Origin: a virus
Length of the DNA: 28,543 nt
Virus record (IMG/VR): IMGVR_UViG_3300025840_000182
Location: 1 to 28,543 of that record
Strand: one strand, 5' to 3'
The position numbers and the translations under genes were made by a program. Every line of letters begins with the position of its first letter. Position 1 is the first letter of the stretch. Below, piece by piece: positions 15,056 to 27,337 of the stretch. A model generated the notes under the pieces. It was not told where the DNA came from, did not search any database, and saw nothing but the letters and a program-made list of their open reading frames with translations.

Positions 15056-15255
15056 GTGACGCGGTAAAGACTGCGGCCAAGGTGGGCCACATTTATTACG
15101 ACCTGCATAACGGGGAAGGCTTTGTTGTGCTGAATGAGCGTTGGTATTGTCTTTTAGAAGATGTTTGTGAACTTGACGTAATTCAAGATGTCATCGCGGA
15201 CATGACCGAGCTATATGAAGATCGACATTCCGTGGTTTTTCCGAAGGTTGATTGA
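15052..15255 (+). CDS. Small hypothetical protein after DNA polymerase
   Basis: The 67-aa protein is acidic, with a beta-type middle (IYYDLHNGEGFVVLNERWY) and an acidic helix toward the end. It has no known motif that I recognise. ATGA overlap with the polymerase gene implies coupled translation and co-expression. It is the last gene before an internal promoter, so it probably ends the main replication operon. Confidence 0.65.
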   Translation: MSDAVKTAAKVGHIYYDLHNGEGFVVLNERWYCLLEDVCELDVIQDVIADMTELYEDRHSVVFPKVD

Positions 15256-15276
15256 TGCTACGACCCTGCGTATACT
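15248..15276 (+). promoter_or_regulatory. Sigma70-type promoter for the 15305 operon
   Basis: TTGATT (15248-15253) and TATACT (15271-15276) are exactly 17 bases apart. The predicted start near 15283 gives a leader of about 22 bases with TAGGAGA before the ATG at 15305. The -35 lies inside the last codons of the 67-aa gene. Confidence 0.65.
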
Positions 15277-15304
15277 TTCCCATACCTAACGTAGGAGACG
15301 TGTA

Positions 15305-15535
15305 ATGGACACGACCAAATGGAAATCTGTGCTACTTCCTCGCGATGTTTATGAGGAGTTGGTGGTGATTGCGCGGGTAGAAGGGCGTACAATTAGTGGA
15401 CAACTTCGGTATATACATGAAGGCTGGAAACAAGAAAATCTTTCCAACCGAGATCAGGAGTATATTGCCGAACAAGTGGATTCATTTAAGAAGGAGAACG
15501 GCGTAGACCTTACGTCAAAAAGCTTTTCAATATGA
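15305..15535 (+). CDS. Ribbon-helix-helix (CopG-like) small DNA-binding protein
   Basis: The 76-aa product opens MDTTKWKSVLLPRDVYEELV, a short beta strand followed by a helix, then VEGRTISGQLRYIHEGW, a second helix. This is the ribbon-helix-helix pattern of CopG/Arc-type repressors, with a charged C-terminal helix. It is the first gene after its own promoter. It may repress its own promoter or act on the operator-like dyad at 18294-18311, but no target is shown. TAGGAGA upstream supports the ATG; the stop overlaps the next ATG. Confidence 0.65.
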   Translation: MDTTKWKSVLLPRDVYEELVVIARVEGRTISGQLRYIHEGWKQENLSNRDQEYIAEQVDSFKKENGVDLTSKSFSI

Positions 15536-16086: not shown

Positions 16087-16171
16087 TGCGTGGTTTGATG
16101 GAACCATGCGATTACTCCTAAAAGTAATTAGGGTTTGTAGTTTTCTCCCAAAGTGAACAACATTAAACCCG

Positions 16172-16198
16172 AGCCCCGCGCAATGCGGGGCTTTTTTT
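16172..16198 (+). terminator. Strong rho-independent terminator
   Basis: AGCCCCGC (16172-16179) pairs with GCGGGGCT (16185-16192) across the loop GCAAT, followed by a T run to 16198. It ends the 15305-16086 operon. The last T bases also form the -35 box of the next promoter. Confidence 0.93.
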
Positions 16199-18770: not shown

Positions 18771-18810
18771 GCTTATTCCAAAAAAGAATTAGACCGCTTT
18801 ATCCCATATA

Positions 18811-18858
18811 TGCGATAGTCGCGGGTGTTCCATGTGGAACATCATTTGGGAGAAAATC
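18811..18858 (+). promoter_or_regulatory. Shared promoter-hairpin leader, copy 1
   Basis: Extended -10 TGCGATAGT (18811-18819) places +1 near 18826, exactly where the palindrome TGTTCCATGTGGAACA (18826-18841) begins, so the mRNA would start with a stem-loop with AUG (18832) at its centre. TTTGGGAGAAAATC follows and ends at the ATG 18859. The same order recurs before the genes at 22721, 23963 and 24436 and, without the TTTGGGA block, at 21252. Confidence 0.6.
18826..18841 (+). repeat. 16-bp palindrome, one base from parS
   Basis: TGTTCCA-TG-TGGAACA is a perfect 7+2+7 inverted repeat. It differs by one central base from the parS sequence at 25684. In copy 1 of the shared leader it also forms the 5' hairpin, so RNA structure alone may explain it. 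Confidence 0.8.
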
Positions 18859-19281
18859 ATGACAACTCTAGAAGAAACCGGTATCCAAATCCGTACCGCC
18901 GTCCTTGACCTGCAAAAACTGGCTAACACTACACGGATCACGGACCCCGAAACCGCATCCAAAATAGATGGCATCGCCAACAACATCACCGAAATCGTTG
19001 ACGGCAAAAACACCATCATGAAAAATCAAGAAATAAACCACACCCCCATCTACGAGGGGCATCACGACGCCGTCATCCTCGCTTTCACGGAAAAAGACGG
19101 CACAAACTCCGCCGAAATCATTTCCCAAACCCCCTTCATCCGCGAACTAAAAGATCAAGAAGAATTTGAACAGGATGTAATGGCCGCATTCAACGGCCTA
19201 GAAAAAGCCTACTCACACTGGCCCGGCGAATACGTCGGACTACAACTCATCATCCGACGTGACTACGTCAACATGACCTGA
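18859..19281 (+). CDS. 140-aa hypothetical protein
   Basis: The start at 18859 is chosen because GGGAG lies about seven bases upstream; an in-frame ATG at 18832 sits in the leader hairpin. Residues 1-55 are helical with heptad spacing (TAVLDLQKLAN... KIDGIANNITEIV). The C-terminal half is alpha/beta (DAVILAFTEKDG... YVGLQLIIRRDYV). No family is recognised. It is one of five genes with the shared promoter-hairpin leader. A TRITDP segment is encoded by an ACGGATC-ACGGACC repeat pair. A small membrane gene follows. Confidence 0.65.
   Translation: MTTLEETGIQIRTAVLDLQKLANTTRITDPETASKIDGIANNITEIVDGKNTIMKNQEINHTPIYEGHHDAVILAFTEKDGTNSAEIISQTPFIRELKDQEEFEQDVMAAFNGLEKAYSHWPGEYVGLQLIIRRDYVNMT
18933..18946 (+). 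repeat. ACGGRCC heptamer pair inside a gene
   Basis: ACGGATC then ACGGACC in tandem, encoding T-R-I-T-D-P. It belongs to the dispersed 7-bp repeat family. Confidence 0.7.
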
Positions 19282-19293
19282 AGGAGAAGGCGC

Positions 19294-19437
19294 ATGAGCG
19301 ACCGCACAGGTGAACTGCTCGTCGGGGCGGCGAAAGTCATGGCAGGGATACTCATTATCCTTACAGCATCATGCACCATCGTTACCTCACACGACCCGCA
19401 ATGGGAATGGCCCCGAGACTTAGAGCAGGGAGAATAG
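19294..19437 (+). CDS. 47-aa small membrane protein
   Basis: AAGGAGA lies about seven bases before the ATG. The peptide is MSDRTGELLVGAAKVMAGIL, then the rest of one membrane helix (IILTASCTIVT), then a short acidic tail (HDPQWEWPRDLEQGE). A Cys at residue 27 sits in a Leu-Thr-Ala-Ser-Cys context, close to but not matching a standard lipobox. It follows the 140-aa gene by 12 bases in the same unit. Holin-like or spanin-like roles are possible but unproven. Confidence 0.6.
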   Translation: MSDRTGELLVGAAKVMAGILIILTASCTIVTSHDPQWEWPRDLEQGE

Positions 19438-19498
19438 ACCACGGCCCATTCTTACCGTGAGCCGTGGCCCATTAGCCCCATGTCGGGAGACAGCAGGC

Positions 19499-19526
19499 AC
19501 GGGCCACGTATCACGGACCACGGATA
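19499..19526 (+). repeat. Four tandem ACGGRCC-type heptamers
   Basis: ACGGGCC, ACGTATC, ACGGACC and ACGGATA run head to tail, the longest run of the 7-bp family in the window. The run merges into the palindrome that begins at 19525. Confidence 0.75.
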
Positions 19527-19541
19527 TATACATTGTATATA
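19525..19541 (+). repeat. 17-bp AT-rich palindrome
   Basis: TATATACAT-TGTATATA is an inverted repeat (ATATACA, one central T, TGTATAT, plus flanking T/A). It could extrude as a cruciform or bind a dimeric protein. Confidence 0.75.
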
Positions 19542-19555
19542 CAAGGTACATACAC

Positions 19556-19572
19556 AAGGTCATTTGTGGCCA
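19556..19572 (+). repeat. 17-bp repeat AAGGTCATTTGTGGCCA, copy A
   Basis: An exact copy is at 25734-25750, and a variant AGTCAAATGTGGCCA at 25776-25790. One copy lies upstream of the terminase small subunit gene and two upstream of the large subunit gene. Confidence 0.75.
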
Positions 19573-19585
19573 CGGACCACGGACC
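19572..19585 (+). repeat. Tandem ACGGACC pair
   Basis: Two perfect ACGGACC units directly follow the TGTGGCC end of the 17-bp repeat, in the non-coding region. Confidence 0.75.
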
Positions 19586-19693
19586 TTTGTGTAGAAGTGC
19601 AGCAAGAAAGGGGCTACCTTTTATATCTACACCCCATCTGTACTTCGAATAATCTATTTTTAAGAAAAATACCTACACTTCTACACTACACCA

Positions 19694-19714
19694 GCGGACC
19701 ACGGACCACGGTGC
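19694..19714 (+). repeat. Three ACGGRCC-type heptamers
   Basis: GCGGACC, ACGGACC and ACGGTGC run in tandem in the non-coding region. Confidence 0.7.
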
Positions 19715-19779
19715 TTAATTTCGCTATCTATATAGTGTTTTCCAGAGAAATAAAAAAATAAAAAAATAAATTCCAAATA

Positions 19780-19812
19780 GGCGGGACCGGCGGGACGGCG
19801 GGACCACGGGCC
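19780..19812 (+). repeat. GGCGGGAC repeats ending in ACGGGCC
   Basis: GGCGGGACC, GGCGGGAC and GGCGGGACC run together, followed by ACGGGCC, beside the TAAAAAAA tract (19751-19766). The sharp change from A-tract to GC-rich repeats is unusual. Confidence 0.7.
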
Positions 19813-19911
19813 TACAGGGCGCATAAACGCTCAATTTTACGGGTCACGTTAGGGTCCCGTTGGATACACCACTTTGTACCAAGCTTGTTAATCAAGCTAT
19901 TGCTATTGAGG

Positions 19912-19953
19912 TTTTCCAGTTTTCAAAAAAATTATTTTTAATTCTCTGGAAAA
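19912..19953 (+). repeat. Long AT-rich hairpin upstream of terminase small subunit
   Basis: TTTTCCAG (19912-19919) pairs with CTGGAAAA (19946-19953), and the interior A and T runs can pair further. The 3' arm is also the partner of TTTTCCAGAGAA at 19738-19749, so two alternative structures compete. Confidence 0.6.
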
Positions 19954-20017
19954 TATATATACAGGGGGCAAAAATAAGGTATGGTTAGCCGGACTTACTC
20001 ACATACAGGGTCTTCGC

Positions 20018-20632
20018 ATGACCAAGAAGAAAAGCCGGTACGCTAAGGTGCTGGACACCAAAGCGGCCTCACTTCCCGAAGCAAAGCAACAGACAAGAAC
20101 ACGACCGCCATTGGCCCAAAAGCGCCTGACGCGTAAGCAAGAACTTTTTGTGCGAGAACTGGTGGCAAAAGATGGGCAAATCACTATGCGGGAGGCGGCG
20201 ATCAATGCCGGGTATCCTGAACGCTCCGCTCATGTTCGCGCTTCCGAACTGACCAACCCCCGCATCAGCCCCCATGTTTGTCGAGCTATCCGCGAATATC
20301 GACAGGAGCTTGATCAGAAGTATGGCGTGGAATACCAACGGCACCTGCGGGATCTGCAAGTGATTCGGGACGCTGCTCTTGAAAACGGCGCATTTAGTGC
20401 GGCGGTTCAGGCAGAGTATCGTCGTGGTCAGGCGCAAGGCGACATCTACGTGAACAAGACAGAGATCCGTCACGGTACGATTGATCAGATGAGCAAGGAA
20501 GAAGTGTTGAAGGCTTTGAATGAGTTGAAGCAAGCATATGCTCCGATAACGCACGATGCCGGAGCAGGGGACGGAGGTAATCGGTCCAAGGCGCGTGAGC
20601 GGTTAGCGGAGGACATAGATGTTTCTGATTAA
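20018..20632 (+). CDS. terS: Terminase small subunit
   Basis: This protein recognises the phage DNA packaging site and loads the large terminase. After a basic N-terminus, LTRKQELFVRELV begins at residue 37, followed by ITMREAAINAGYPERSA, the helix-turn-helix pattern of Terminase_2 proteins. A helical oligomerisation region (residues 90-140) and a C-terminal region (KEEVLKALNELKQAY) follow; 204 aa is typical. It is about 5.2 kb from the large subunit gene, whereas the two are usually adjacent; accessory genes fill the gap. The start follows a candidate TATGGT -10 at 19980 with no clear -35. CAGGG is a weak ribosome site. Confidence 0.88.
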   Translation: MTKKKSRYAKVLDTKAASLPEAKQQTRTRPPLAQKRLTRKQELFVRELVAKDGQITMREAAINAGYPERSAHVRASELTNPRISPHVCRAIREYRQELDQKYGVEYQRHLRDLQVIRDAALENGAFSAAVQAEYRRGQAQGDIYVNKTEIRHGTIDQMSKEEVLKALNELKQAYAPITHDAGAGDGGNRSKARERLAEDIDVSD

Positions 20633-20810
20633 TTTCTTGGGACGACTCTGGTTTGGTTCAGATCGGTGGGATTTGGTTAACGAGAATAAGACTCCAGTGA
20701 TTTACACCAAGCGCGCATATATGACTTCACTACAACGGTTGGATTTTGAAGAGTTGACGGGTAATGACCGATATTTTGGAAGTAAAAGCAAAGCCAAAGA
20801 AACAGCGTGA
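20619..20810 (+). CDS. 63-aa hypothetical protein
   Basis: The peptide begins MFLINFLGRLWFGSDRWDLV, with an amphipathic hydrophobic start, then a soluble region ending GSKSKAKETA. GGAGG lies about eight bases upstream of the ATG. It overlaps terS by 14 bases and the next nuclease gene by 47, so it is co-expressed in the same operon. No family is recognised. Confidence 0.55.
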   Translation: MFLINFLGRLWFGSDRWDLVNENKTPVIYTKRAYMTSLQRLDFEELTGNDRYFGSKSKAKETA

Positions 20811-21198
20811 AGCCAGCTTCTGGCAGGCGTTGAAGAAAGCTATCCGGGATAACTGTCCGGATTGGTCAGCCACGCGGCTGGAGTCGAGGGCTACCTTGGG
20901 TGTGCCAGATGTCTTGATCATGGATGGCAAGGGCGATTGGCATATGGTGGAGTTGAAGACCACACACAATATGTCCGTAGACATTTCGCCGCATCAGGTG
21001 GCGTTTGCTACTAAACACGCGCGGGGTAGCTGTTGGATTGCAGTAAAGCTGTGCGGTGCCACGGGCAGTGAGATATTCCTGTATCGCGGTGACCGTGCGG
21101 TGGATTTGAAAATGGACGGTTTAAACGCGAAGCCGACTAAACATTTCAGCCATCCTGTTTCGTACCGGAGTGTTCTTCACGCTATTGCAACTATGTGA
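20764..21198 (+). CDS. PD-(D/E)XK endonuclease, VRR-NUC/Holliday-resolvase-like
   Basis: The core has GVPDVL (D49), then HMVELKTT (E63, K65) and a helix SPHQVAFATKHA, the arrangement of small PD-(D/E)XK resolvases and VRR-NUC nucleases. At 144 aa it is single-domain. A role in resolving branched DNA before packaging would fit its place directly after the terminase small subunit, but host-DNA degradation is equally possible. The ATG lies in a GGGTAATG context. No terminator follows before the next promoter. Confidence 0.8.
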   Translation: MTDILEVKAKPKKQREASFWQALKKAIRDNCPDWSATRLESRATLGVPDVLIMDGKGDWHMVELKTTHNMSVDISPHQVAFATKHARGSCWIAVKLCGATGSEIFLYRGDRAVDLKMDGLNAKPTKHFSHPVSYRSVLHAIATM

Positions 21199-21231
21199 TG
21201 TATCCCATACTATGGTGATGGGCATATGCCC
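21185..21231 (+). promoter_or_regulatory. Promoter and 5' hairpin for the 21252 operon (shared leader design, copy 2)
   Basis: TTGCAA (21185-21190) and TACTAT (21208-21213) are 17 bases apart; +1 is predicted at 21220, the first base of the palindrome GGGCATATGCCC (21220-21231). The loop holds an AUG (21226) 26 bases before the gene's ATG, and ACGGGAGACG follows as ribosome site. It keeps the 5'-hairpin layout but lacks the TTTGGGA block. Confidence 0.55.
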
Positions 21232-21251
21232 TGACCAACGGGAGACGAACC

Positions 21252-21539
21252 ATGAGACTTGAATTTGCATTGGCGCTTTTAACAGAAGAGATGGCGTGGT
21301 GTTTGAAACGCTACGATCAAGGATCGGAGATTTATCAAGACATTTCTGAAGCTCTTAGGGCCGTTAAAGAGGAAACTACTTCACGGTTGATAGAAGAACT
21401 GATTGAGCATGAAGAGCAGAATGATGACCCCCATCATTTAGAAAGCTTGAAGATACATTGGGGCGTAATGAGTTTTGCTGATTTGGTGGCGGAGTATTGC
21501 GACACTTTCCCAGCCGCAAATCGGGAGGCCGTGTCATGA
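21252..21539 (+). CDS. 95-aa acidic hypothetical protein
   Basis: The product is helical and acidic (MRLEFALALLTEEMAWCLKR at the start; LIEELIEHEEQNDD in the middle). GGGAG supports the ATG. It opens a four-gene operon with ATGA overlaps between the first three genes, under a promoter with a 5' hairpin. No known family. Confidence 0.6.
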   Translation: MRLEFALALLTEEMAWCLKRYDQGSEIYQDISEALRAVKEETTSRLIEELIEHEEQNDDPHHLESLKIHWGVMSFADLVAEYCDTFPAANREAVS

Positions 21540-22012
21540 CAGCGATTGAACAATACGGGCAGGACCCTGCCACCGTTACCAATCCTGCTTATTGGGACTG
21601 CGAATGTGAAAAGGATTACATCCGCCCAAAAAGCAAACCTGAGTGCTTTACCTGCAACACCTGTGAAGACGATCAACCGGACAGCCGCGCCGACGAAGTG
21701 GCGGCGGCGTTAACGGATGTTGAGCTTTGGCCCTCAATCGAAACGCGAGATCACTACCAGATCCACGGCTGGGTTTCGATGGACACAAAGATTGATGTCT
21801 TGGCGCGCAGTGAAGAGGAAGCTATTGAAATCGCCCACATCGTTTTTAATCAGCGCGTATACGAGATGTATCATGCCAACATTGGGGCCGACAACACGGT
21901 GGAAAATGAATGGTACGAACCCCATTGCGATCAAATGGAAATTGTGGACGTTCGCGAATATGACGGTGACACCTGCTACACCCTTGAGTCTACGGCGGAG
22001 GATGAGTCATGA
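21536..22012 (+). CDS. 158-aa hypothetical protein with Cys motif
   Basis: The start at ATG 21536 overlaps the previous stop and has GGGAGG upstream. Near residues 22-45 there are four Cys (CECEKDY... CFTCNTC) that may bind zinc. The C-terminal part (HYQIHGWVSMDTKIDVLARS... AIEIAHIVF) is alpha/beta. It may be a zinc-binding accessory protein; the family is not recognised. Confidence 0.6.
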   Translation: MTAIEQYGQDPATVTNPAYWDCECEKDYIRPKSKPECFTCNTCEDDQPDSRADEVAAALTDVELWPSIETRDHYQIHGWVSMDTKIDVLARSEEEAIEIAHIVFNQRVYEMYHANIGADNTVENEWYEPHCDQMEIVDVREYDGDTCYTLESTAEDES

Positions 22013-22254
22013 GCGAACTAAGATTACCGGTGTGGACCGTGGTGTGCGGCGAGCGGTGCAGGTGGTTTCCTGACCATGCCTCTGCAAAGGAATTTGCAAA
22101 CAATGAATGGGACAAAGAAGCGGACGGTGTGCCCTTTGTCGAATCTCACACCATATGGGATGTGGAAGAGGTCTGCGAGATTCTGAACAACATTGAATCG
22201 TTTGCGGACAATGCGCCTGCTCCCGGCGAAATAAAAACGGGGGCGTGGAGGTGA
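22009..22254 (+). CDS. 81-aa hypothetical protein
   Basis: The start overlaps the previous stop (ATGA). The sequence LPVWTVVCGERCRWFPDHAS suggests a beta hairpin with two Cys, followed by an acidic helix (WDVEEVCEILNNIESF). It is co-expressed with its neighbours in the 21252 operon. No known family. Confidence 0.6.
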   Translation: MSELRLPVWTVVCGERCRWFPDHASAKEFANNEWDKEADGVPFVESHTIWDVEEVCEILNNIESFADNAPAPGEIKTGAWR

Positions 22255-22255
22255 G

Positions 22256-22582
22256 GTGTTTTCTCTTTTTTGGAGATACGAAGAAAGCCTTAAAAAGCGC
22301 AAACAAAAAATCGTTTTGGCAAAAGCATTTCGCAAGCCGATACCTCGGCCATATTTTTATTGGGAGGAAAACGCTATGACAAGAGGCGAAGCCGCCGAGG
22401 CTAGATACGCGGGCCTGACTTACGACCATGCCCTGCCGCAGGGTTGGGTGGACGCGTGTTGTGAAAAGGGCCTTGATCCTAGAGGTCATTTTGTTTGGCT
22501 TTACGACGATTACGTCGGACGGCCTGCCCCCATCACTGGCGAGGGGGATCGGATTGTATCCTTGCTCGCCCGTGATCCGTAG
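22256..22582 (+). CDS. Hypothetical protein with two possible starts
   Basis: GTG at 22256 with GGAGG upstream gives 108 aa beginning with a basic segment (VFSLFWRYEESLKKRKQKIV). ATG at 22376 with GGGAGG eight bases upstream gives a 68-aa form (MTRGEAAEARYAGLTYDHAL). The long form avoids a 120-base gap in a packed operon; the short form has the better ribosome site, so both may be made. It ends the operon at a UUCG-loop terminator. Confidence 0.5.
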   Translation: MFSLFWRYEESLKKRKQKIVLAKAFRKPIPRPYFYWEENAMTRGEAAEARYAGLTYDHALPQGWVDACCEKGLDPRGHFVWLYDDYVGRPAPITGEGDRIVSLLARDP

Positions 22583-22600
22583 GTGCTAGCGCCTACGCCA

Positions 22601-22623
22601 AGCCGCCTTCGGGCGGCTTTTTT
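22601..22623 (+). terminator. Rho-independent terminator with UUCG tetraloop
   Basis: AGCCGCC (22601-22607) pairs with GGCGGCT (22612-22618) around TTCG, then a T run. A second hairpin (GTAGG 22579-22583 with CCTAC 22592-22596, plus inner pairs) lies just before it. It ends the 21252 operon. Confidence 0.93.
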
Positions 22624-22649
22624 ATGCTAAAGAAATTTTAAAAAGAGCA

Positions 22650-22720
22650 TTGCGGAGCGGGGGCCGGTATGCGATAGTTCGGTTGCGGCAATGTCGCCGC
22701 GTACTTTGGGAGAAGTAACC
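22650..22720 (+). promoter_or_regulatory. Shared promoter-hairpin leader, copy 3
   Basis: TTGCGG (22650-22655), a 17-base spacer and GATAGT (22673-22678) with extended TGC put +1 at 22685. There, GCGGC-AATGTC-GCCGC (22685-22700) forms a 5' stem-loop. ACTTTGGGA (22703-22711) then leads to the ATG at 22721. The stem is inverted relative to copy 4, with the same loop. Confidence 0.6.
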
Positions 22721-23854
22721 ATGCAACACTCGATTGAAAATTCAGACCACACCCTGACCCGCTTGCTTCAACAGGTGCAGGACCAAGCCGCTAGATCTCA
22801 GGACTTTCTGGCCCCCACTAACCAGCTTCAACTTATGACCGGTGATCGGGGTGACGGTAGCAAGGTCAGCCAAATCATTATGGAACAGTCTGGCGGGGCA
22901 CCGACTCAGATCCTCGCCGCCAATGACGTGGCGTTTGACCAGATCAGCCAGCGGGCCGGTATCGATGTCCGGACTGCCCGCCGCCTTCAGCAGGATTACT
23001 CTGCTGAATTCGATGGACTGATTAATGCTATCTGGCAGAAAGAACCGGCGGTGCGGATGATCCGTTCGTTCCAGCATTCTGACCGCGCAGGGACTGCTCG
23101 CGCCTTTGTCTCAGACAAGTTTAAGACCTTCGACAATGTTCACCTGCTCAACTCCGCACTGCCTGAACTGCTGGAAAGCGATGCCCAGTGGCAAGTGGTA
23201 AACGGGACGGTGACTGACAAGCGCCTATACCTTCGCCTAAAGTCAGCGGTCATCACTGGCGAGGGCGCGGCGGTTGGCGACATCATGGCGCTGGGCATAG
23301 GTATGTCTAACAGCGAAGTCGGTTGCGGTAGCGTTAATGTTTACCAAATGTTCTGGACGCTGGCCTGCCTGAACGGGATGCAAACCGAAAAGCGTACTCG
23401 CAAGTCGCACATCACTGGGGCGCGGGGCGATGCCGATACTTGGGGCCTGCTGACAGATGAGGCAAAGGATGCTGACAATCATGCGCTGGCGCTTCAAATG
23501 CGGGATGTCACTGCCGCATATGCTAGCCGCGAATCATTCGATGAAGTGCTAGAAAAGATGAAAACCGCGCATCAGGACAAAGTCGAGGGCTCGCCGCAGT
23601 CGGCAGTCGAGGCCATGGGCAAAGTGTTGGCGCTGACTAAGAAAGATACCGCTAGCCTGATGGACGGCTTGCTCGCCACCATCGGGCAGGCGGGCTATGC
23701 CGGTCAGCCAGTAACCCGCGCCACTATGGTGAACGCGGTGACGGCGGTAGCGCATCGGGCGGACGCGGATAGCGTGGACGATTGGCAGAAACTGGGCGGG
23801 CGCGTGTTGGATTTGCCCCGCTCCGATTGGCAACGCGTGGCGATGGCCGCATAA
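22721..23854 (+). CDS. DUF932 family phage/plasmid protein
   Basis: The 377-aa product matches the general pattern of DUF932 (phage/plasmid-like) proteins: VRTARRLQQDY, VNGTVTDKRLYLRLKS, a central segment GIGMSNSEVGCGSVNVYQMF and a W-x-L-x-CLNGM stretch. The family is widespread on plasmids and phages and its role is unsettled. The chosen start has GGGAGAA upstream; the in-frame ATG at 22691 lies inside the 5' hairpin. It is a stand-alone gene with its own promoter and terminator, GC-richer than the virion genes, like a moron. Confidence 0.82.
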   Translation: MQHSIENSDHTLTRLLQQVQDQAARSQDFLAPTNQLQLMTGDRGDGSKVSQIIMEQSGGAPTQILAANDVAFDQISQRAGIDVRTARRLQQDYSAEFDGLINAIWQKEPAVRMIRSFQHSDRAGTARAFVSDKFKTFDNVHLLNSALPELLESDAQWQVVNGTVTDKRLYLRLKSAVITGEGAAVGDIMALGIGMSNSEVGCGSVNVYQMFWTLACLNGMQTEKRTRKSHITGARGDADTWGLLTDEAKDADNHALALQMRDVTAAYASRESFDEVLEKMKTAHQDKVEGSPQSAVEAMGKVLALTKKDTASLMDGLLATIGQAGYAGQPVTRATMVNAVTAVAHRADADSVDDWQKLGGRVLDLPRSDWQRVAMAA

Positions 23855-23873
23855 CCTACACTCCCCAAAGTGT

Positions 23874-23899
23874 GCCCCGCTCCGGCGGGGCTTTTTTTT
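23874..23899 (+). terminator. Rho-independent terminator after DUF932 gene
   Basis: GCCCCGC (23874-23880) pairs with GCGGGGC (23885-23891) around TCCG, then eight T. Just upstream, CTCCCCAAAGT (23861-23871) contains the reverse complement of the shared leader block ACTTTGGG. Confidence 0.93.
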
Positions 23900-23962
23900 G
23901 CCCGCGAGGTATGCGATAGTCCGACTGCCGCAATGTCGCGGCTAACTTTGGGATAATTTGTT
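23892..23962 (+). promoter_or_regulatory. Shared promoter-hairpin leader, copy 4
   Basis: The terminator T run (23892-23897) sits at the -35 distance from TGC-GATAGT (-10 at 23915-23920). +1 falls at 23927, the first base of GCCGC-AATGTC-GCGGC (23927-23942). ACTTTGGGA (23945-23953) follows. The AUG in the loop (23933) opens a seven-codon frame, MSRLTLG, that stops before the gene's ATG 30 bases on. Confidence 0.6.
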
Positions 23963-24331
23963 ATGGGAACTACAGTCACAATTGAAGATGTCGAATTGGA
24001 TAGCGGAACCGTTTATTGCGACCGCGCATATGACATTGTCGAAATCATGAGTAACAGCGGCATTACGTTAGATGATGTGATTCATGAGGCGGTAAGCTCG
24101 GGATGGGAATCACCGGAATTGGATTTTGATGCCATTGCCGATTGGATTCCGGCAGGCCATGCAACCGACACGCAACTGAGCGATTTGGCGTACCGTATCG
24201 CTCGCGAATTAGTGAGCCGATTGGATAACGTCCGCCAGTGTGCGGACCGGCATCTAGAAACCAACCGCCAAAATGTGGAGCGCATCCGCGAACTGGAGCG
24301 CGCCGCCGGACCGGAGGCCGTGACCGCGTAG
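23963..24331 (+). CDS. 122-aa hypothetical protein
   Basis: The product begins MGTTVTIEDVELDSGTVYCD and is acidic and mostly helical. LDDVIHEAVSSGWE lies in the middle, and a C-terminal coiled-coil-like segment (RHLETNRQNVERIRELERAA) follows. It is a stand-alone transcription unit between two terminators, with the shared leader. No family is recognised; a small regulatory or anti-host role is only a guess based on the moron-like arrangement. Confidence 0.65.
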   Translation: MGTTVTIEDVELDSGTVYCDRAYDIVEIMSNSGITLDDVIHEAVSSGWESPELDFDAIADWIPAGHATDTQLSDLAYRIARELVSRLDNVRQCADRHLETNRQNVERIRELERAAGPEAVTA

Positions 24332-24347
24332 GCAATCCCGCCTCAGT

Positions 24348-24374
24348 AGCCCGCCATCCGGCGGGCTTTTTTTT
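24348..24374 (+). terminator. Rho-independent terminator after 122-aa gene
   Basis: AGCCCGCC (24348-24355) pairs with GGCGGGCT (24360-24367) around ATCC, then a T run. As in the unit before it, a leader with the TATGCGATA block begins within 20 bases. Confidence 0.93.
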
Positions 24375-24382
24375 GCCTAGCG

Positions 24383-24435
24383 TATGCGATACCCTAAGCG
24401 GGCCGCGATGGGCGGCGACACTTTGGGAACTGATT
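24383..24435 (+). promoter_or_regulatory. Shared promoter-hairpin leader, copy 5
   Basis: TATGCGATACC (24383-24393) is followed by GCCGC-GATGG-GCGGC (24402-24416), with AUG in the loop, and ACTTTGGGA (24420-24428). The gene's ATG is at 24436. The -10 is one or two bases weaker than the other copies. Confidence 0.55.
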
Positions 24436-25143
24436 ATGCAATTACTCGACACGCGGGGTGCAAACCCCAAATTGAAAAAGACGGCGGAACTCGGGAACGT
24501 GTTCGGTTCATTTCGTTACGCGGGCTTGTCACTTTATCCCGATGCGGAATTGTGCCCGGCATCTAAGGCGGCGGGGTGCGCTGATACTTGTCTGGCAGAT
24601 CAAGGGCGCGGGCGGTTTGATAACGTGCGCGAAGCGCGCCAGCGCAAGGCGGCATTCTTCCGCGACAATCGCGCGGCTTTTCTTGATCAACTCCACCGCG
24701 AGCTATCCAACTTCGGAAAGCTTTGTGACCGCACTGGGGAGCGCGGCGTTGTCCGGCTTAACGTTCTGTCCGATGTCCGTTGGGAAATGCTCGGCATACC
24801 GCAAGCGCATCCCAATCTTTTTATGCTGGACTATACAAAGCGCGCGGATCGGCTTTGCAAAACGCCCGATAATTACCGGCTAATTTTCAGCTATAGCGGG
24901 CGGCCCCAGTACCGCCGGCAAAATGAAAAAGCATTAGCGACCGGCTTACCGATTGCGGTTGTATTTCGCGGCGGCTTGCCTGCTAAGTTTCTCGGGCGGC
25001 GCGTGATAGACGGGGATCGCTCCGACTATTTGAACGCAACCGAGGGAACCGGGTGCATTGTCGGACTAACCGCGAAGGGTAGCGCGCGTCGGGATCGGTC
25101 CGGCTTTGTGATCGATAACCCCGACTTGATCGGGACCGACTGA
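24436..25143 (+). CDS. GP88-like family protein
   Basis: From ATG 24436 the product is 235 aa. It opens with KLKKTAELGNVFGSFRYAGL and the Cys cluster CPASKAAGCADTC (C40, C48, C52). The motifs GRGRFDNVREARQRKAAFF and VRLNVLSDVRWEM match the layout of the GP88-type phage family, whose biochemical role is unclear; the clustered Cys suggest a metal or iron-sulphur site. A much longer frame from 24238 would read through the terminator and is rejected. Composition is GC-rich. It has its own leader and terminator. Confidence 0.75.
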   Translation: MQLLDTRGANPKLKKTAELGNVFGSFRYAGLSLYPDAELCPASKAAGCADTCLADQGRGRFDNVREARQRKAAFFRDNRAAFLDQLHRELSNFGKLCDRTGERGVVRLNVLSDVRWEMLGIPQAHPNLFMLDYTKRADRLCKTPDNYRLIFSYSGRPQYRRQNEKALATGLPIAVVFRGGLPAKFLGRRVIDGDRSDYLNATEGTGCIVGLTAKGSARRDRSGFVIDNPDLIGTD

Positions 25144-25149
25144 AACCAG

Positions 25150-25173
25150 ACCCCGCCCCGAGCGGGGTTTTTT
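25150..25173 (+). terminator. Rho-independent terminator after GP88-like gene
   Basis: ACCCCGC (25150-25156) pairs with GCGGGGT (25162-25168) around CCCGA, then a T run. It ends the moron-like series. Confidence 0.92.
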
Positions 25174-25640
25174 GTGCCCGCTGTTTGTCCGTTTTCACTT
25201 CCCACAGTTTGTAGGGTTATTCACTCCGCCGCCGACAGTTTTTGGTTTTTGGCACGGGGGGCATTTAAGCTGCCGATTCGCCCAGGCATCGCACACGCCC
25301 CCCAGTGTTTACGCGGCTTTCCGAGCGGTTCGCGGGAGAGCGCCGAAAAACGCCCCCTAGAATTTACTTCAAGTGTTTGCCGCAACCGGTAACACGTGGC
25401 GCGGGGGCCGCGCCCCCTGCACCGAGCAAAACGCACCGGGGGCACTGGGCCGGGGTCCGGGCACCGGGGGCCAGTGCCCGCGTTGCTTTTGTCATGACGT
25501 TTTGACCGGTCAACTGACGTAAAGACACATTTAAGGAAGTTAGCGGGGCCCGTGGGCGGATCGCGTCAAACGGCCCAGCGGCGCGGGATCGCGGCGCATC
25601 GCCCGCGCGGCGCGGCGGCGGCCCGGCGAGCGGCATCAAG
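25174..25640 (+). other. GC-rich non-coding island upstream of terminase large subunit
   Basis: I see no convincing gene: several short frames have no ribosome site and odd composition. Parts are extremely GC-rich with strong inverted repeats: GGGGGC 25403-25408 with GCCCCC 25412-25417, and GGGCACTGG 25440-25448 with CCAGTGCCC 25471-25479. The composition breaks sharply at about 25640 into AT-rich DNA. It might be a packaging or cos/pac region, a recent insertion, or a remnant; nothing settles it. Confidence 0.55.
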
Positions 25641-25683
25641 GTGCATGTTTCTTACAAACAACACAGCGGTGAAACCATATCGA

Positions 25684-25699
25684 TGTTCCACGTGGAACA
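25684..25699 (+). other. parS: Perfect chromosomal-type parS site
   Basis: TGTTCCACGTGGAACA is a perfect 16-bp palindrome. It is the canonical ParB-binding parS form known from bacterial chromosomes (consensus TGTTNCACGTGNAACA). It lies 169 bases upstream of the terminase large subunit ATG, in AT-rich DNA. No ParA or ParB gene is in the window. If functional, it would bind host ParB or a phage ParB encoded elsewhere. Confidence 0.75.
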
Positions 25700-25733
25700 A
25701 AAAAATTGTTAAAAAAAGGTAAGCCGCAACAAA

Positions 25734-25750
25734 AAGGTCATTTGTGGCCA
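25734..25750 (+). repeat. 17-bp repeat AAGGTCATTTGTGGCCA, copy B
   Basis: Identical to the copy at 19556-19572, and 118 bases upstream of the terminase large subunit gene. Confidence 0.75.
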
Positions 25751-25775
25751 AGCAAATAAAAAAAGAGTTTAAAAT

Positions 25776-25790
25776 AGTCAAATGTGGCCA
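25776..25790 (+). repeat. TGGCCA-type repeat, variant copy C
   Basis: AGTCAAATGTGGCCA matches copy B at 12 of 15 positions and lies 26 bases after it. Together they could be tandem protein-binding sites before the terminase large subunit gene. Confidence 0.65.
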
Positions 25791-25829
25791 AAAATTTTAT
25801 AAAAAATTTCAAACCTACCGTGTCTTATA

Positions 25830-25838
25830 TGCTTTAAT
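25830..25838 (+). promoter_or_regulatory. Extended -10 promoter for terminase large subunit
   Basis: TGC-TTTAAT has the extended -10 TGn element and a hexamer one base from TATAAT. No good -35 is seen, which is usual for extended -10 promoters. The gene's ATG is 30 bases downstream; AAAGG gives a weak ribosome site. Confidence 0.45.
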
Positions 25839-25867
25839 AGTTTTAGGTAATTAAAAGGCTGTCTCAT

Positions 25868-27337
25868 ATGTCCATTGAACGCATTACAGATGAGGAAGCG
25901 GAAGAGAAGATTCTGAAGCTTGAGTACCGTCTGGCGCAGATTGAGCAGGTCGAAGCTTGCCAAAACGAGTTTTTAAGCTTTGTTCGCAGCATGTGGCCGG
26001 AGTTCATTGCGGGCAGGCACCACCGAATCATGGCGGAGAAGCTTGAGAGGGTGGCTAAAGGCGAGTTAAAGCGCCTGATCATCAACATGCCGCCGCGCCA
26101 CACCAAATCTGAATTTGCCAGTTTCTTGTTTCCGGCGTGGATGATCGGGAAAAACCCGGCGATGAAGATCATTCAGGCCACTCACACCACGGAGCTTGCG
26201 GTCAATTTTGGCCGAAAAGTCAAAAACCTTTTGGAACGCGAGGATTATCTTGAGATATTCCCGGACGCGGCCCTTTCAGCGGATTCCAAGGCTTCCGGAC
26301 GTTGGGACACGGCCCGTGGTGGCATGTACTACGGCGTGGGTGTTGGCTCAAACTTGGCGGGTCGTGGTGGTGATTTGATCATTATTGACGATCCGCACTC
26401 TGAGCAGACGGCGATGTCGTTAAATGGGTTTGATGACGCGTGGGAGTGGTATACGGGTGGTCCTCGCCAGCGTTTGCAGCCCGGTGGAGCCATTATTGTG
26501 GTGATGACCCGGTGGTCTGAGAAGGATTTGACGGGCCAATTGATTCGGGCGCAGGCGCGGGATAGTTTGGCGGACAACTGGGAAGTCATTGAATTTCCTA
26601 TGGAAATGCCGTCTGGCAAGCCTTTGTGGCCGCAATTTTGGTCATTTGAGGAGATGCAGGCGGTAAAGGCGTCGATTCCGTTGCCCAAATGGAACGCGCA
26701 GTACCAACAAAACCCGACCGGCGACGAAAACGCGATTATCAAGCGGGAGTGGTGGAATGTTTGGGACAAGCAGAACATTCCGCAATTGCAATATGTTATT
26801 CAGAGCTATGACACGGCGTTTTCCAAAAGCACTAGGGCTGACTATAGTGCGATTACGACGTGGGGGGTGTTTTATCCGGAAGAAGGAACGGTAGCGGCGT
26901 TGATTTTGCTGGACGCTAAAAAAGGTCGCTGGGATTTCCCGGAGTTAAAACAGATGGCGATGGAGGCGTACAAGTTTTGGGAGCCTGAAACGGTCATTAT
27001 TGAGGCCAAGGCGAGCGGTATGCCTTTGACCCATGAGCTACGAAACATGGGAATTCCTGTGGTAAACTTTACCCCTAGCCGAGGAAATGACAAGGTGTCA
27101 AGGGTTCACAGTGTTTCTACTTTGTTTGAGAGTGGGATGATTTGGGCACCGGACGAGTCGTGGGCACACGAAGTTATTGAGGAGTGTGCGGCGTTTCCTA
27201 ACGGGGAGCATGATGATTTAGTTGATAGCACGACGCAGGCGTTGATGCGTTATCGACAAGGCAACTTTATTCAGTTGCCTTCTGACTACTGGGAAGATGA
27301 GGGCGCTTCATTGAAGGTCCAACAATATTACGGGTAA
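25868..27337 (+). CDS. terL: Terminase large subunit
   Basis: This is the packaging motor: an N-terminal ATPase and a C-terminal nuclease. Walker A is PPRHTKS (residues 75-81), Walker B is LIIIDDPH (D174, D175) and the coupling region is VMTRWSEKDL. The nuclease domain has SYDTAFSK (D315), IIEAKASG (E379) and HDDLVDS (D450, D453), the acidic metal-binding set. At 489 aa it is full length. A sharp composition change and parS/TGGCCA repeats lie upstream. The next gene follows after five bases. Confidence 0.95.
   Translation: MSIERITDEEAEEKILKLEYRLAQIEQVEACQNEFLSFVRSMWPEFIAGRHHRIMAEKLERVAKGELKRLIINMPPRHTKSEFASFLFPAWMIGKNPAMKIIQATHTTELAVNFGRKVKNLLEREDYLEIFPDAALSADSKASGRWDTARGGMYYGVGVGSNLAGRGGDLIIIDDPHSEQTAMSLNGFDDAWEWYTGGPRQRLQPGGAIIVVMTRWSEKDLTGQLIRAQARDSLADNWEVIEFPMEMPSGKPLWPQFWSFEEMQAVKASIPLPKWNAQYQQNPTGDENAIIKREWWNVWDKQNIPQLQYVIQSYDTAFSKSTRADYSAITTWGVFYPEEGTVAALILLDAKKGRWDFPELKQMAMEAYKFWEPETVIIEAKASGMPLTHELRNMGIPVVNFTPSRGNDKVSRVHSVSTLFESGMIWAPDESWAHEVIEECAAFPNGEHDDLVDSTTQALMRYRQGNFIQLPSDYWEDEGASLKVQQYYG

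What the first reader, a model, noticed from the sequence alone, without database searches (positions are those of the whole stretch)
18805..24438. Five genes share a promoter plus 5'-terminal hairpin leader with compensatory stem changes
At 18811, 22670, 23912 and 24383 the same order recurs: TATGCGATA(GT), six to eight bases, a hairpin with AUG in or at its loop, TTTGGGA, and the gene's ATG. A fifth unit (21208) has the same layout without TTTGGGA. Predicted +1 falls on or within two bases of the first hairpin base each time. Copies 3 and 4 swap the stem (GCGGC/GCCGC against GCCGC/GCGGC) around an identical AATGTC loop, which is covariation. Known 5'-terminal stem-loops protect mRNA from RppH and RNase E; this may be a portable stabiliser and expression module, or a protein-binding operator.
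Basis: partly seen in the sequence, partly recalled or inferred. Interest (0 to 1): 0.8.

Follow-up and report, generated by a model that had tools for sequence, protein, structure and literature searches.

The report
Plug-in phage gene leader with hairpin
A group of uncultivated, mostly marine phages puts the same small control segment (promoter, an RNA hairpin at the very start of the message, a ribosome site) in front of many unrelated small genes, and base changes in the hairpin arms compensate each other, so the hairpin is real and probably protects or tags the message.

Summary
The layout is real. Four exact TATGCGATA copies (0.14 expected) sit at one spacing before genes. In all five units the predicted +1 is the first base of the hairpin. 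However, the five are not one hairpin family: a covariance model recovers only the copies at 22685, 23927 and 24402. The 18826 copy is a parS-type palindrome (TGTTCCATGTGGAACA). The 21220 copy (GGGCATATGCCC) shares only the layout. The quoted 'stem swap' is a flip of one middle base pair.

Relatives in IMG/VR give 174 distinct leaders before about 20-30 unrelated protein families. All 5 stem pairs show changes on both sides (0/500 shuffles). One-sided changes are all G·U (27), none A·C, which points to RNA. The loop RAUnn(n), CUUUGGGAG and the spacings are also conserved. Stem start follows the -10 register (106/114 within 2 nt).

Best reading: a lineage-specific, exchangeable one-gene cassette: host-sigma-type promoter overlapped by an operator-like palindrome, a 5'-terminal hairpin shielding the mRNA 5' end, and a conserved ribosome site. 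Stabilisation is inferred; the conserved loop leaves room for an RNA-binding protein. Closest known: 5'-terminal stabilising stem-loops, and SAS/ESAS of cluster K mycobacteriophages.

The parts
18809..18819 (+). Unit 1: TATGCGATA operator-like site merging into extended -10 (TGC GATAGT)
   Evidence: no -35 at 17 bp (AGACCG)
18826..18841 (+). Unit 1 hairpin TGTTCCATGTGGAACA; parS-type palindrome, one base from consensus; predicted +1 = 18826
   Evidence: orthologous leaders in L018, L041, L122 carry perfect parS; not matched by model R1
18845..18851 (+). Unit 1 TTTGGGA ribosome-site element; gene 18859-19281
21185..21213 (+). Unit 5 promoter TTGCAA-17-TACTAT; TATCCCATA (21201-21209) is a one-mismatch flipped operator
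   Evidence: promoter, TATCCCATA and hairpin kept in orthologues L070, L116
21220..21231 (+). Unit 5 hairpin GGGCATATGCCC; predicted +1 = 21220; GGGAG at 21240-21244; gene 21252-21539
   Evidence: not matched by model R1
22650..22678 (+). Unit 2 promoter TTGCGG-17-GATAGT, with TATGCGATA at 22668-22676
22685..22700 (+). Unit 2 5'-terminal hairpin GCGGC-AATGTC-GCCGC; predicted +1 = 22685
   Evidence: R1 match E 1.7e-8
22705..22711 (+). Unit 2 TTTGGGA; 377-aa gene 22721-23854 (phrog_1362, function unknown)
23874..23899 (+). Intrinsic terminator between units 2 and 3
23910..23920 (+). Unit 3 TATGCGATAGT operator/extended -10
   Evidence: no -35 (T-run of terminator at 17 bp)
23927..23942 (+). Unit 3 hairpin GCCGC-AATGTC-GCGGC; predicted +1 = 23927
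   Evidence: R1 match E 1.5e-6
23947..23953 (+). Unit 3 TTTGGGA; gene 23963-24331
24348..24375 (+). Intrinsic terminator between units 3 and 4
24383..24395 (+). Unit 4 TATGCGATA overlapping -10 TACCCT (24390-24395)
24402..24416 (+). Unit 4 hairpin GCCGC-GATGG-GCGGC; predicted +1 = 24402
   Evidence: R1 match E 3.4e-7
24422..24428 (+). Unit 4 TTTGGGA; GP88-family gene 24436-25143 (PF17338)
15305..15535 (+). Candidate regulator: ribbon-helix-helix-like protein conserved in relatives
   Evidence: RHH_5 24.6 bits, just under the 26-bit cut-off; in 16 of 23 records; link to TATGCGATA is inference only
25684..25699 (.). Perfect parS TGTTCCACGTGGAACA upstream of terminase large subunit

Best explanation
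It is a lineage-specific, exchangeable one-gene expression cassette, lying in the region between the small and large terminase genes. In order: the intrinsic terminator of the previous gene, a host-sigma70-type promoter (often extended -10) overlapped by a short palindromic operator-like site TATGCGATA, a transcript that starts on the first base of a 5-bp GC-rich hairpin with loop RAUnn(n), then 3-6 nt, CUUUGGGAG as ribosome site, 6-9 nt, and AUG. Shown by sequence: the layout, its reuse before unrelated genes, conservation of pairing through compensating and G.U changes, and the tie between hairpin start and predicted +1. Inferred: that the hairpin works in RNA mainly by leaving no unpaired 5' nucleotides, so that RppH and 5'-end-dependent RNase E act poorly and the mRNA lives longer; that TATGCGATA binds a regulator that switches the genes together; that common leaders let cassettes be exchanged. 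The parS-like and GGGCATATGCCC hairpins are then alternative stems in the same 5'-terminal position.
For: Covariation: 61 leaders, 5 of 5 pairs with changes on both sides, 92.8% of cells paired versus 78.2% shuffled (0/500), slid partners far worse; RNAalifold independently finds the same stem. One-sided changes are 27 G.U and 0 A.C, a strand asymmetry expected for RNA. Position: predicted +1 equals the first stem base in 80 of 114 distinct units and lies within 2 nt in 106 of 114; GATAGT gives offset 17 and TACCCT offset 19, so the hairpin moves with the -10. Portability: 30 protein clusters, 21 with several members; between the 377-aa gene and GP88 the slot holds families F6, F2, F13, F24 or F26 in different phages. 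Restricted to this lineage: the operator-hairpin pattern gave 4 scattered hits without TTTGGGA in 257 Gb of prokaryote contigs. 5' structure blocks RppH/RNase E in E. coli (PMC3997798).
Against: No 5' ends or half-lives are known. The stem is only 5 bp and single folds are no stabler than shuffles. A pure stabiliser would not need a conserved loop (AAU or GAU in 144 of 170) or conserved CUUUGGGAG. In E. coli RppH affects only about 10% of mRNAs (PMC3997798), and the host is unknown. Several units lack a recognisable -35. 14 units lacked a -10 by the rule used.
Confidence: 0.55

Rival explanations
1. The hairpin is an RNA operator: a phage or host RNA-binding protein reads the RAU loop on a structural stem next to the ribosome site and represses or activates translation of the whole set, as coat-protein or RegA-type operators do.
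For: Loop begins AAU or GAU in 144 of 170 leaders while the stem varies by compensation; the hairpin ends 3-6 nt before CUUUGGGAG; one set of genes shares it.
Against: No candidate RNA-binding protein identified. The parS-type and GGGCATATGCCC hairpins in the same position lack the loop. The ribosome site itself is not in the stem.
Confidence: 0.27
2. The inverted repeat acts in DNA as a dimer binding site at +1 to +16.
For: Palindromic; the 18826 copy is nearly a parS DNA site; relatives of ESAS were read as DNA sites by their authors.
Against: Stem letters change while pairing is kept, the asymmetric loop is conserved, loop length varies 5-6, and one-sided changes are only G.U: the opposite of a DNA site, where arm letters are fixed.
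Confidence: 0.1
3. TATGCGATA is only an unusual extended -10 element, not an operator, and its conservation needs no regulator.
For: TGC-GATAGT fits an extended -10, and 377-aa leaders have TTGCnn at 17 bp.
Against: Relatives carry it flipped (TATCGCATA) at the same place, doubled (TATCGCATATGCGATA), or replaced by another palindrome around the spacer (CGGGTAACAACCCG) while hairpin and ribosome site stay.
Confidence: 0.3

Closest known systems
SAS/ESAS of cluster K mycobacteriophages (Pope et al. 2011, PMC3203893; Adephagia 2024, PMC11373665)
   Same: Short conserved sequence just before many start codons of unrelated small phage genes, extended upstream in a subset by an inverted repeat and a sigma-type promoter; lineage-specific; unknown function.
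   Different: Different sequences (GGGATAGGAGCCC versus CUUUGGGAG). Their 17-bp repeats do not support RNA pairing, according to the authors, and overlap the promoter. Here a 5-bp stem starting at the predicted +1 shows strong compensation.
5'-terminal stabilising stem-loops of E. coli mRNAs (ompA, papA type; reviewed in PMC3997798)
   Same: Stem at or next to the 5' end, with a ribosome site downstream in single strand.
   Different: Here one class is reused before about 20-30 unrelated gene families of a phage lineage with a conserved loop; effect on decay is untested.
Leaders in phage DSL-LC04 (OR003939) and pelagiphages HTVC023P/HTVC027P
   Same: Same genome region between terminase genes; single-gene units with own promoter and a repeated ribosome-site phrase (ACATACAGGAG in DSL-LC04, AACTAACAAAGCGAG in HTVC023P). 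DSL-LC04 16079 has TATAAT-TCAC-GGGCGGGAATCCTCCCGC.
   Different: No TATGCGATA and no CTTTGGGA leaders; only weak R1 matches (best 11.4 bits, E 1.7).
Chromosomal parS (Pseudomonas type, PMC7022226) and parS mimicry by SGI1 (PMC10954446)
   Same: The 16-bp palindrome itself; a mobile element with parS copies but, as far as tested, no ParB of its own.
   Different: Here in phages, with copies before the terminase gene, inside a virion-gene reading frame and in one leader; function unknown.

Membership tests
5'-terminal stabilising mRNA stem-loop | Stem begins at the transcript's first nucleotides | tested here: inconclusive
   Predicted +1 equals first stem base in all five units and in 80/114 relatives; 5' ends not mapped
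5'-terminal stabilising mRNA stem-loop | Base pairing maintained by selection | tested here: met
   5/5 pairs with changes on both sides, 0/500 shuffles
5'-terminal stabilising mRNA stem-loop | Lengthens mRNA half-life | not testable with these tools
   Needs an RNA decay assay
SAS/ESAS of cluster K phages | 13-bp GGGATAGGAGCCC before start codons | tested here: not met
   The element here is CTTTGGGAG
SAS/ESAS of cluster K phages | Conserved sequence before starts of genes of many families | tested here: met
   30 protein clusters
Sigma70-type promoter | -35 and -10 hexamers 16-18 bp apart | tested here: inconclusive
   Good for units at 21185 and 22650; the others rely on an extended -10 or a weak -10; the consensus scan did not list them
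Intrinsic terminator or attenuator | Hairpin followed by a T-run | tested here: not met
   Hairpins are followed by 3-6 nt and TTTGGGA; terminators lie upstream of units 3 and 4
Known Rfam RNA family | Match at gathering score | tested here: not met
   No match in window and five loci
parS centromere site (18826 and 25684) | TGTTCCACGTGGAACA | tested here: met
   Perfect at 25684; one base off at 18826
parS centromere site (18826 and 25684) | Bound by a ParB | not testable with these tools
   No ParB_N domain in 17 phage records, several of them fragments; a host ParB would be needed

The most novel reading that the evidence does not exclude
A phage lineage runs a post-transcriptional regulon: one RNA-binding protein reads the RAU-loop hairpin at the 5' end of every cassette mRNA, so any newly acquired gene becomes co-regulated by plugging in behind the leader. 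In the variant leader the RNA hairpin doubles as a parS DNA site for the host's ParB.
Probability: 0.22. Interest if true: 0.8.

Novelty: new variant of a known kind. Interest (0 to 1): 0.56.

Why it matters
Repeated start-linked sequences in phages (SAS/ESAS) have been known since 2011 without a proven role; there RNA pairing was judged unsupported. Here the RNA hairpin has clear compensatory support and is tied to the predicted start of transcription, so a defined test is possible: reporter plus stem and loop mutants. It also offers a marker for finding exchangeable accessory genes in an uncultivated marine phage group, and a compact, insulated single-gene expression part.

Tried and rejected
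DNA-only palindrome for the RAU class: rejected on compensation, G.U-only one-sided changes and the conserved asymmetric loop. AUG in the loop as upstream start or leaderless start: rejected, 79 of 170 loops lack ATG. Attenuator/terminator: no T-run after the hairpin. Folding energy as evidence: rejected. Known RNA family: none (one sub-threshold snoRNA match judged chance). Origin from host genomes: pattern absent from prokaryote contigs apart from 4 hits with no TTTGGGA behind them. Named phages: no DNA match in the phage collection; R1 finds nothing strong in HTVC023P, HTVC027P, 023Pt_psg01 or DSL-LC04 (only the first 50 kb of each was held). Regulator search: no HTH_3, no ParB_N; an RHH-like protein is the only candidate found. 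Host: not identified. A first loose pattern scan of viral contigs includes chance hits in unrelated contigs; nine such loci were left out by eye. Literature: no paper found on phages carrying chromosomal parS without ParB; the library is partial. A first attempt to hand in this report failed for missing fields.
Full report
WHAT THE WINDOW IS. The window is a 28,543-base IMG/VR phage record. It holds a family-A DNA polymerase, helicases, a primase, a Cas4-like exonuclease and both terminase subunits. The nearest named phages by polymerase are DSL-LC04 (55.5%), 023Pt_psg01 (54.9%), and the SAR11 phages HTVC023P and HTVC027P (49.7% and 48.6%). The five units lie in 18.8-24.4 kb, four of them between the small (20018-20632) and large (25868-27337) terminase genes and one just before the small one. 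No DNA match exists in the phage collection. Close relatives come from IMG/VR, including records of about 57.7 kb.

CHECK OF THE OBSERVATION. Four exact TATGCGATA copies are present where 0.14 are expected. Taking the best -10 in each unit, the predicted +1 (seven bases past the -10) is 18826, 21220, 22685, 23927 and 24402, in every case the first base of the hairpin. Units at 22650 and 21185 have a -35 at 17 bp (TTGCGG, TTGCAA); the others do not. Intrinsic terminators lie just upstream of the units at 23910 and 24383, and one about 50 bp upstream of the unit at 22668. A covariance model made from relatives finds three window copies and rejects the hairpins at 18826 and 21220. So the five share a layout, and three share a hairpin family. 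Note that the model was built from leaders of close relatives; copies nearly identical to the window's three were among them, so their scores are high partly by construction.

RELATIVES. 174 distinct leaders were collected. The stem starts 17-19 nt after the operator in most, is 5 bp, has a loop beginning AAT or GAT in 144 of 170, ends 3-6 nt before TTTGG in most, and the ATG follows 14-17 nt after the first T of TTTGGGA in most. On a plain MAFFT alignment of 61 of them all five pairs have changes on both sides; 92.8% of cells pair against 78.2% in shuffles, covariation score 0.413 against 0.184, 0 of 500 shuffles reaching it; sliding the partners drops pairing to 27-72%. RNAalifold gives the same stem unprompted. 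The strongest contribution is the middle pair (28 G-C, 26 C-G), and the sequences are related, so the counts are not independent events; however both orientations occur inside single gene families (families 4, 6, 7, 14). One-sided changes are G.U in 27 cells and A.C in none. In DNA the two would be equally likely; in RNA only G.U keeps the pair. The leaders were gathered by an operator and ribosome-site search, and a 5-bp stem was then required for the alignment, which favours paired cells; only 4 of 174 lacked such a stem, so the effect of that filter is small.

TIE TO TRANSCRIPTION. In 114 distinct units with a recognisable -10 the stem starts exactly at predicted +1 in 80 and within 2 nt in 106. 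Where the operator runs on as GATAGT the stem starts 17 nt after the operator start (55 of 69); where it runs on as GATACCCT, so that TACCCT is the better -10 two bases later, the stem starts at 19 (34 of 36).

PORTABILITY. The leaders precede 30 protein clusters (a few of the single-member ones are probably mis-called frames, so about 20-30 is the honest range). Gene order along 16 records shows fixed genes (377-aa, GP88) with different cassettes in the slots between and after them. Parts mix: some relatives keep hairpin and ribosome site but replace the operator by TAATAT behind CGGGTAACAACCCG (L012, L039), some carry the operator flipped (L050, L054), and unit 18809 keeps the operator with a parS-type hairpin.

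DISTRIBUTION. A strict hairpin-plus-ribosome-site pattern gives 66 stretches in viral contigs, most of which are contigs already known as relatives. The operator-hairpin pattern gives four scattered hits in 257 Gb of prokaryote contigs, none followed by TTTGGGA. More distant phages show the same idea with other sequences: DSL-LC04 has several leaders ending ACATACAGGAG, one with TATAAT, four bases, and a GCGGGAATCCTCCCGC hairpin; HTVC023P repeats AACTAACAAAGCGAG before starts (read by eye). In HTVC027P, two genes of the same genome region (gp33, gp34) have their own early-to-middle expression pattern (PMC12753301).

MECHANISM. Shown: conserved RNA-type pairing, position, reuse. Inferred: the blunt 5' stem hinders RppH and RNase E, both of which need a single-stranded 5' end in E. 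coli (PMC3997798). The conserved loop is not explained by that, hence the rival of an RNA-binding protein. TATGCGATA behaves like a regulator site (flipped, doubled, replaced). An RHH-like protein (15305-15535), kept in 16 of 23 records, is the only candidate found; its own promoter carries GTATAC...CATAC-type repeats. That link is a lead only.

PARS. The 18826 hairpin matches parS with one mismatch, and perfect parS sites occur 23 times in 641 kb of this lineage (tiles overlap slightly) against none for 200 shuffled palindromes. No ParB_N domain was found in 17 records. The position of parS before the large terminase gene recurs in many relatives. In the orthologous leaders the parS centre is sometimes broken (ATGT, ACAT) while the arms still pair, so an RNA role there is possible too. 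SGI1 shows that an element can live on another replicon's ParB (PMC10954446).

COMPARISON. The nearest described thing is SAS/ESAS of cluster K mycobacteriophages, where repeats precede starts, and ESAS contain sigma-type promoters, but RNA pairing was judged unsupported. The present leader is not a member (sequence differs) but is the same kind of organisation, with a better-supported RNA element.

VERDICT. Real, new to the searched literature, moderately surprising; function unproven.

Noticed in passing
window 25684-25699 and 18826-18841; L118:9383, L119:1552, L122:5935, L124:2836, L150:9325 and 9353: Chromosomal-type parS palindromes recur at conserved places in this phage lineage (before the large terminase gene, inside a virion-gene frame, after a terminator, in one leader) while no ParB_N domain was found in 17 records. 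May exploit host ParB.
   Followed up: partly
L008:119-300, L012, L014, L042, L048, L050, L056, L278 and others (not in window): A longer conserved leader contains an rRNA-type boxA-like phrase (TGYTCTTTAACA) followed by GCTGGCCTAGCACCGAGACGCGAGTCCGCTATCGGATGGCA and CACTTTGGGAG before different small genes; no Rfam match. May be an antitermination or other structured leader.
   Followed up: partly
L153:10085-10200, L146:6249 (minus strand), L057, L058, L062: In a more distant subgroup, TTGACA-17-GATAGT is followed by two larger hairpins, GCTCTTTAACA and CACTTTGGGAGG before the gene: another leader class with a boxA-like phrase.
   Followed up: no
window 15245-15304: Promoter of the RHH-like gene carries GTATACTTTCCCATACC, conserved in close relatives (CCGTATACTCTCYTATACC), similar in part to TATCCCATAC of the 21208 unit: possible self-regulation.
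   Followed up: partly
window 19450-20010 and 25150-25860: Two long non-coding stretches flank the cassette region; both contain GGTCATTTGTGGCCA, and the first has many GGACCACGGA-type repeats. Possible origin or packaging region.
   Followed up: no
window 16100-16175, minus strand: TTCACTTTGGGAGAAAAC downstream of a terminator on the minus strand, a weak R1 match (15.7 bits, E 0.14); may be a remnant or divergent leader.
   Followed up: no
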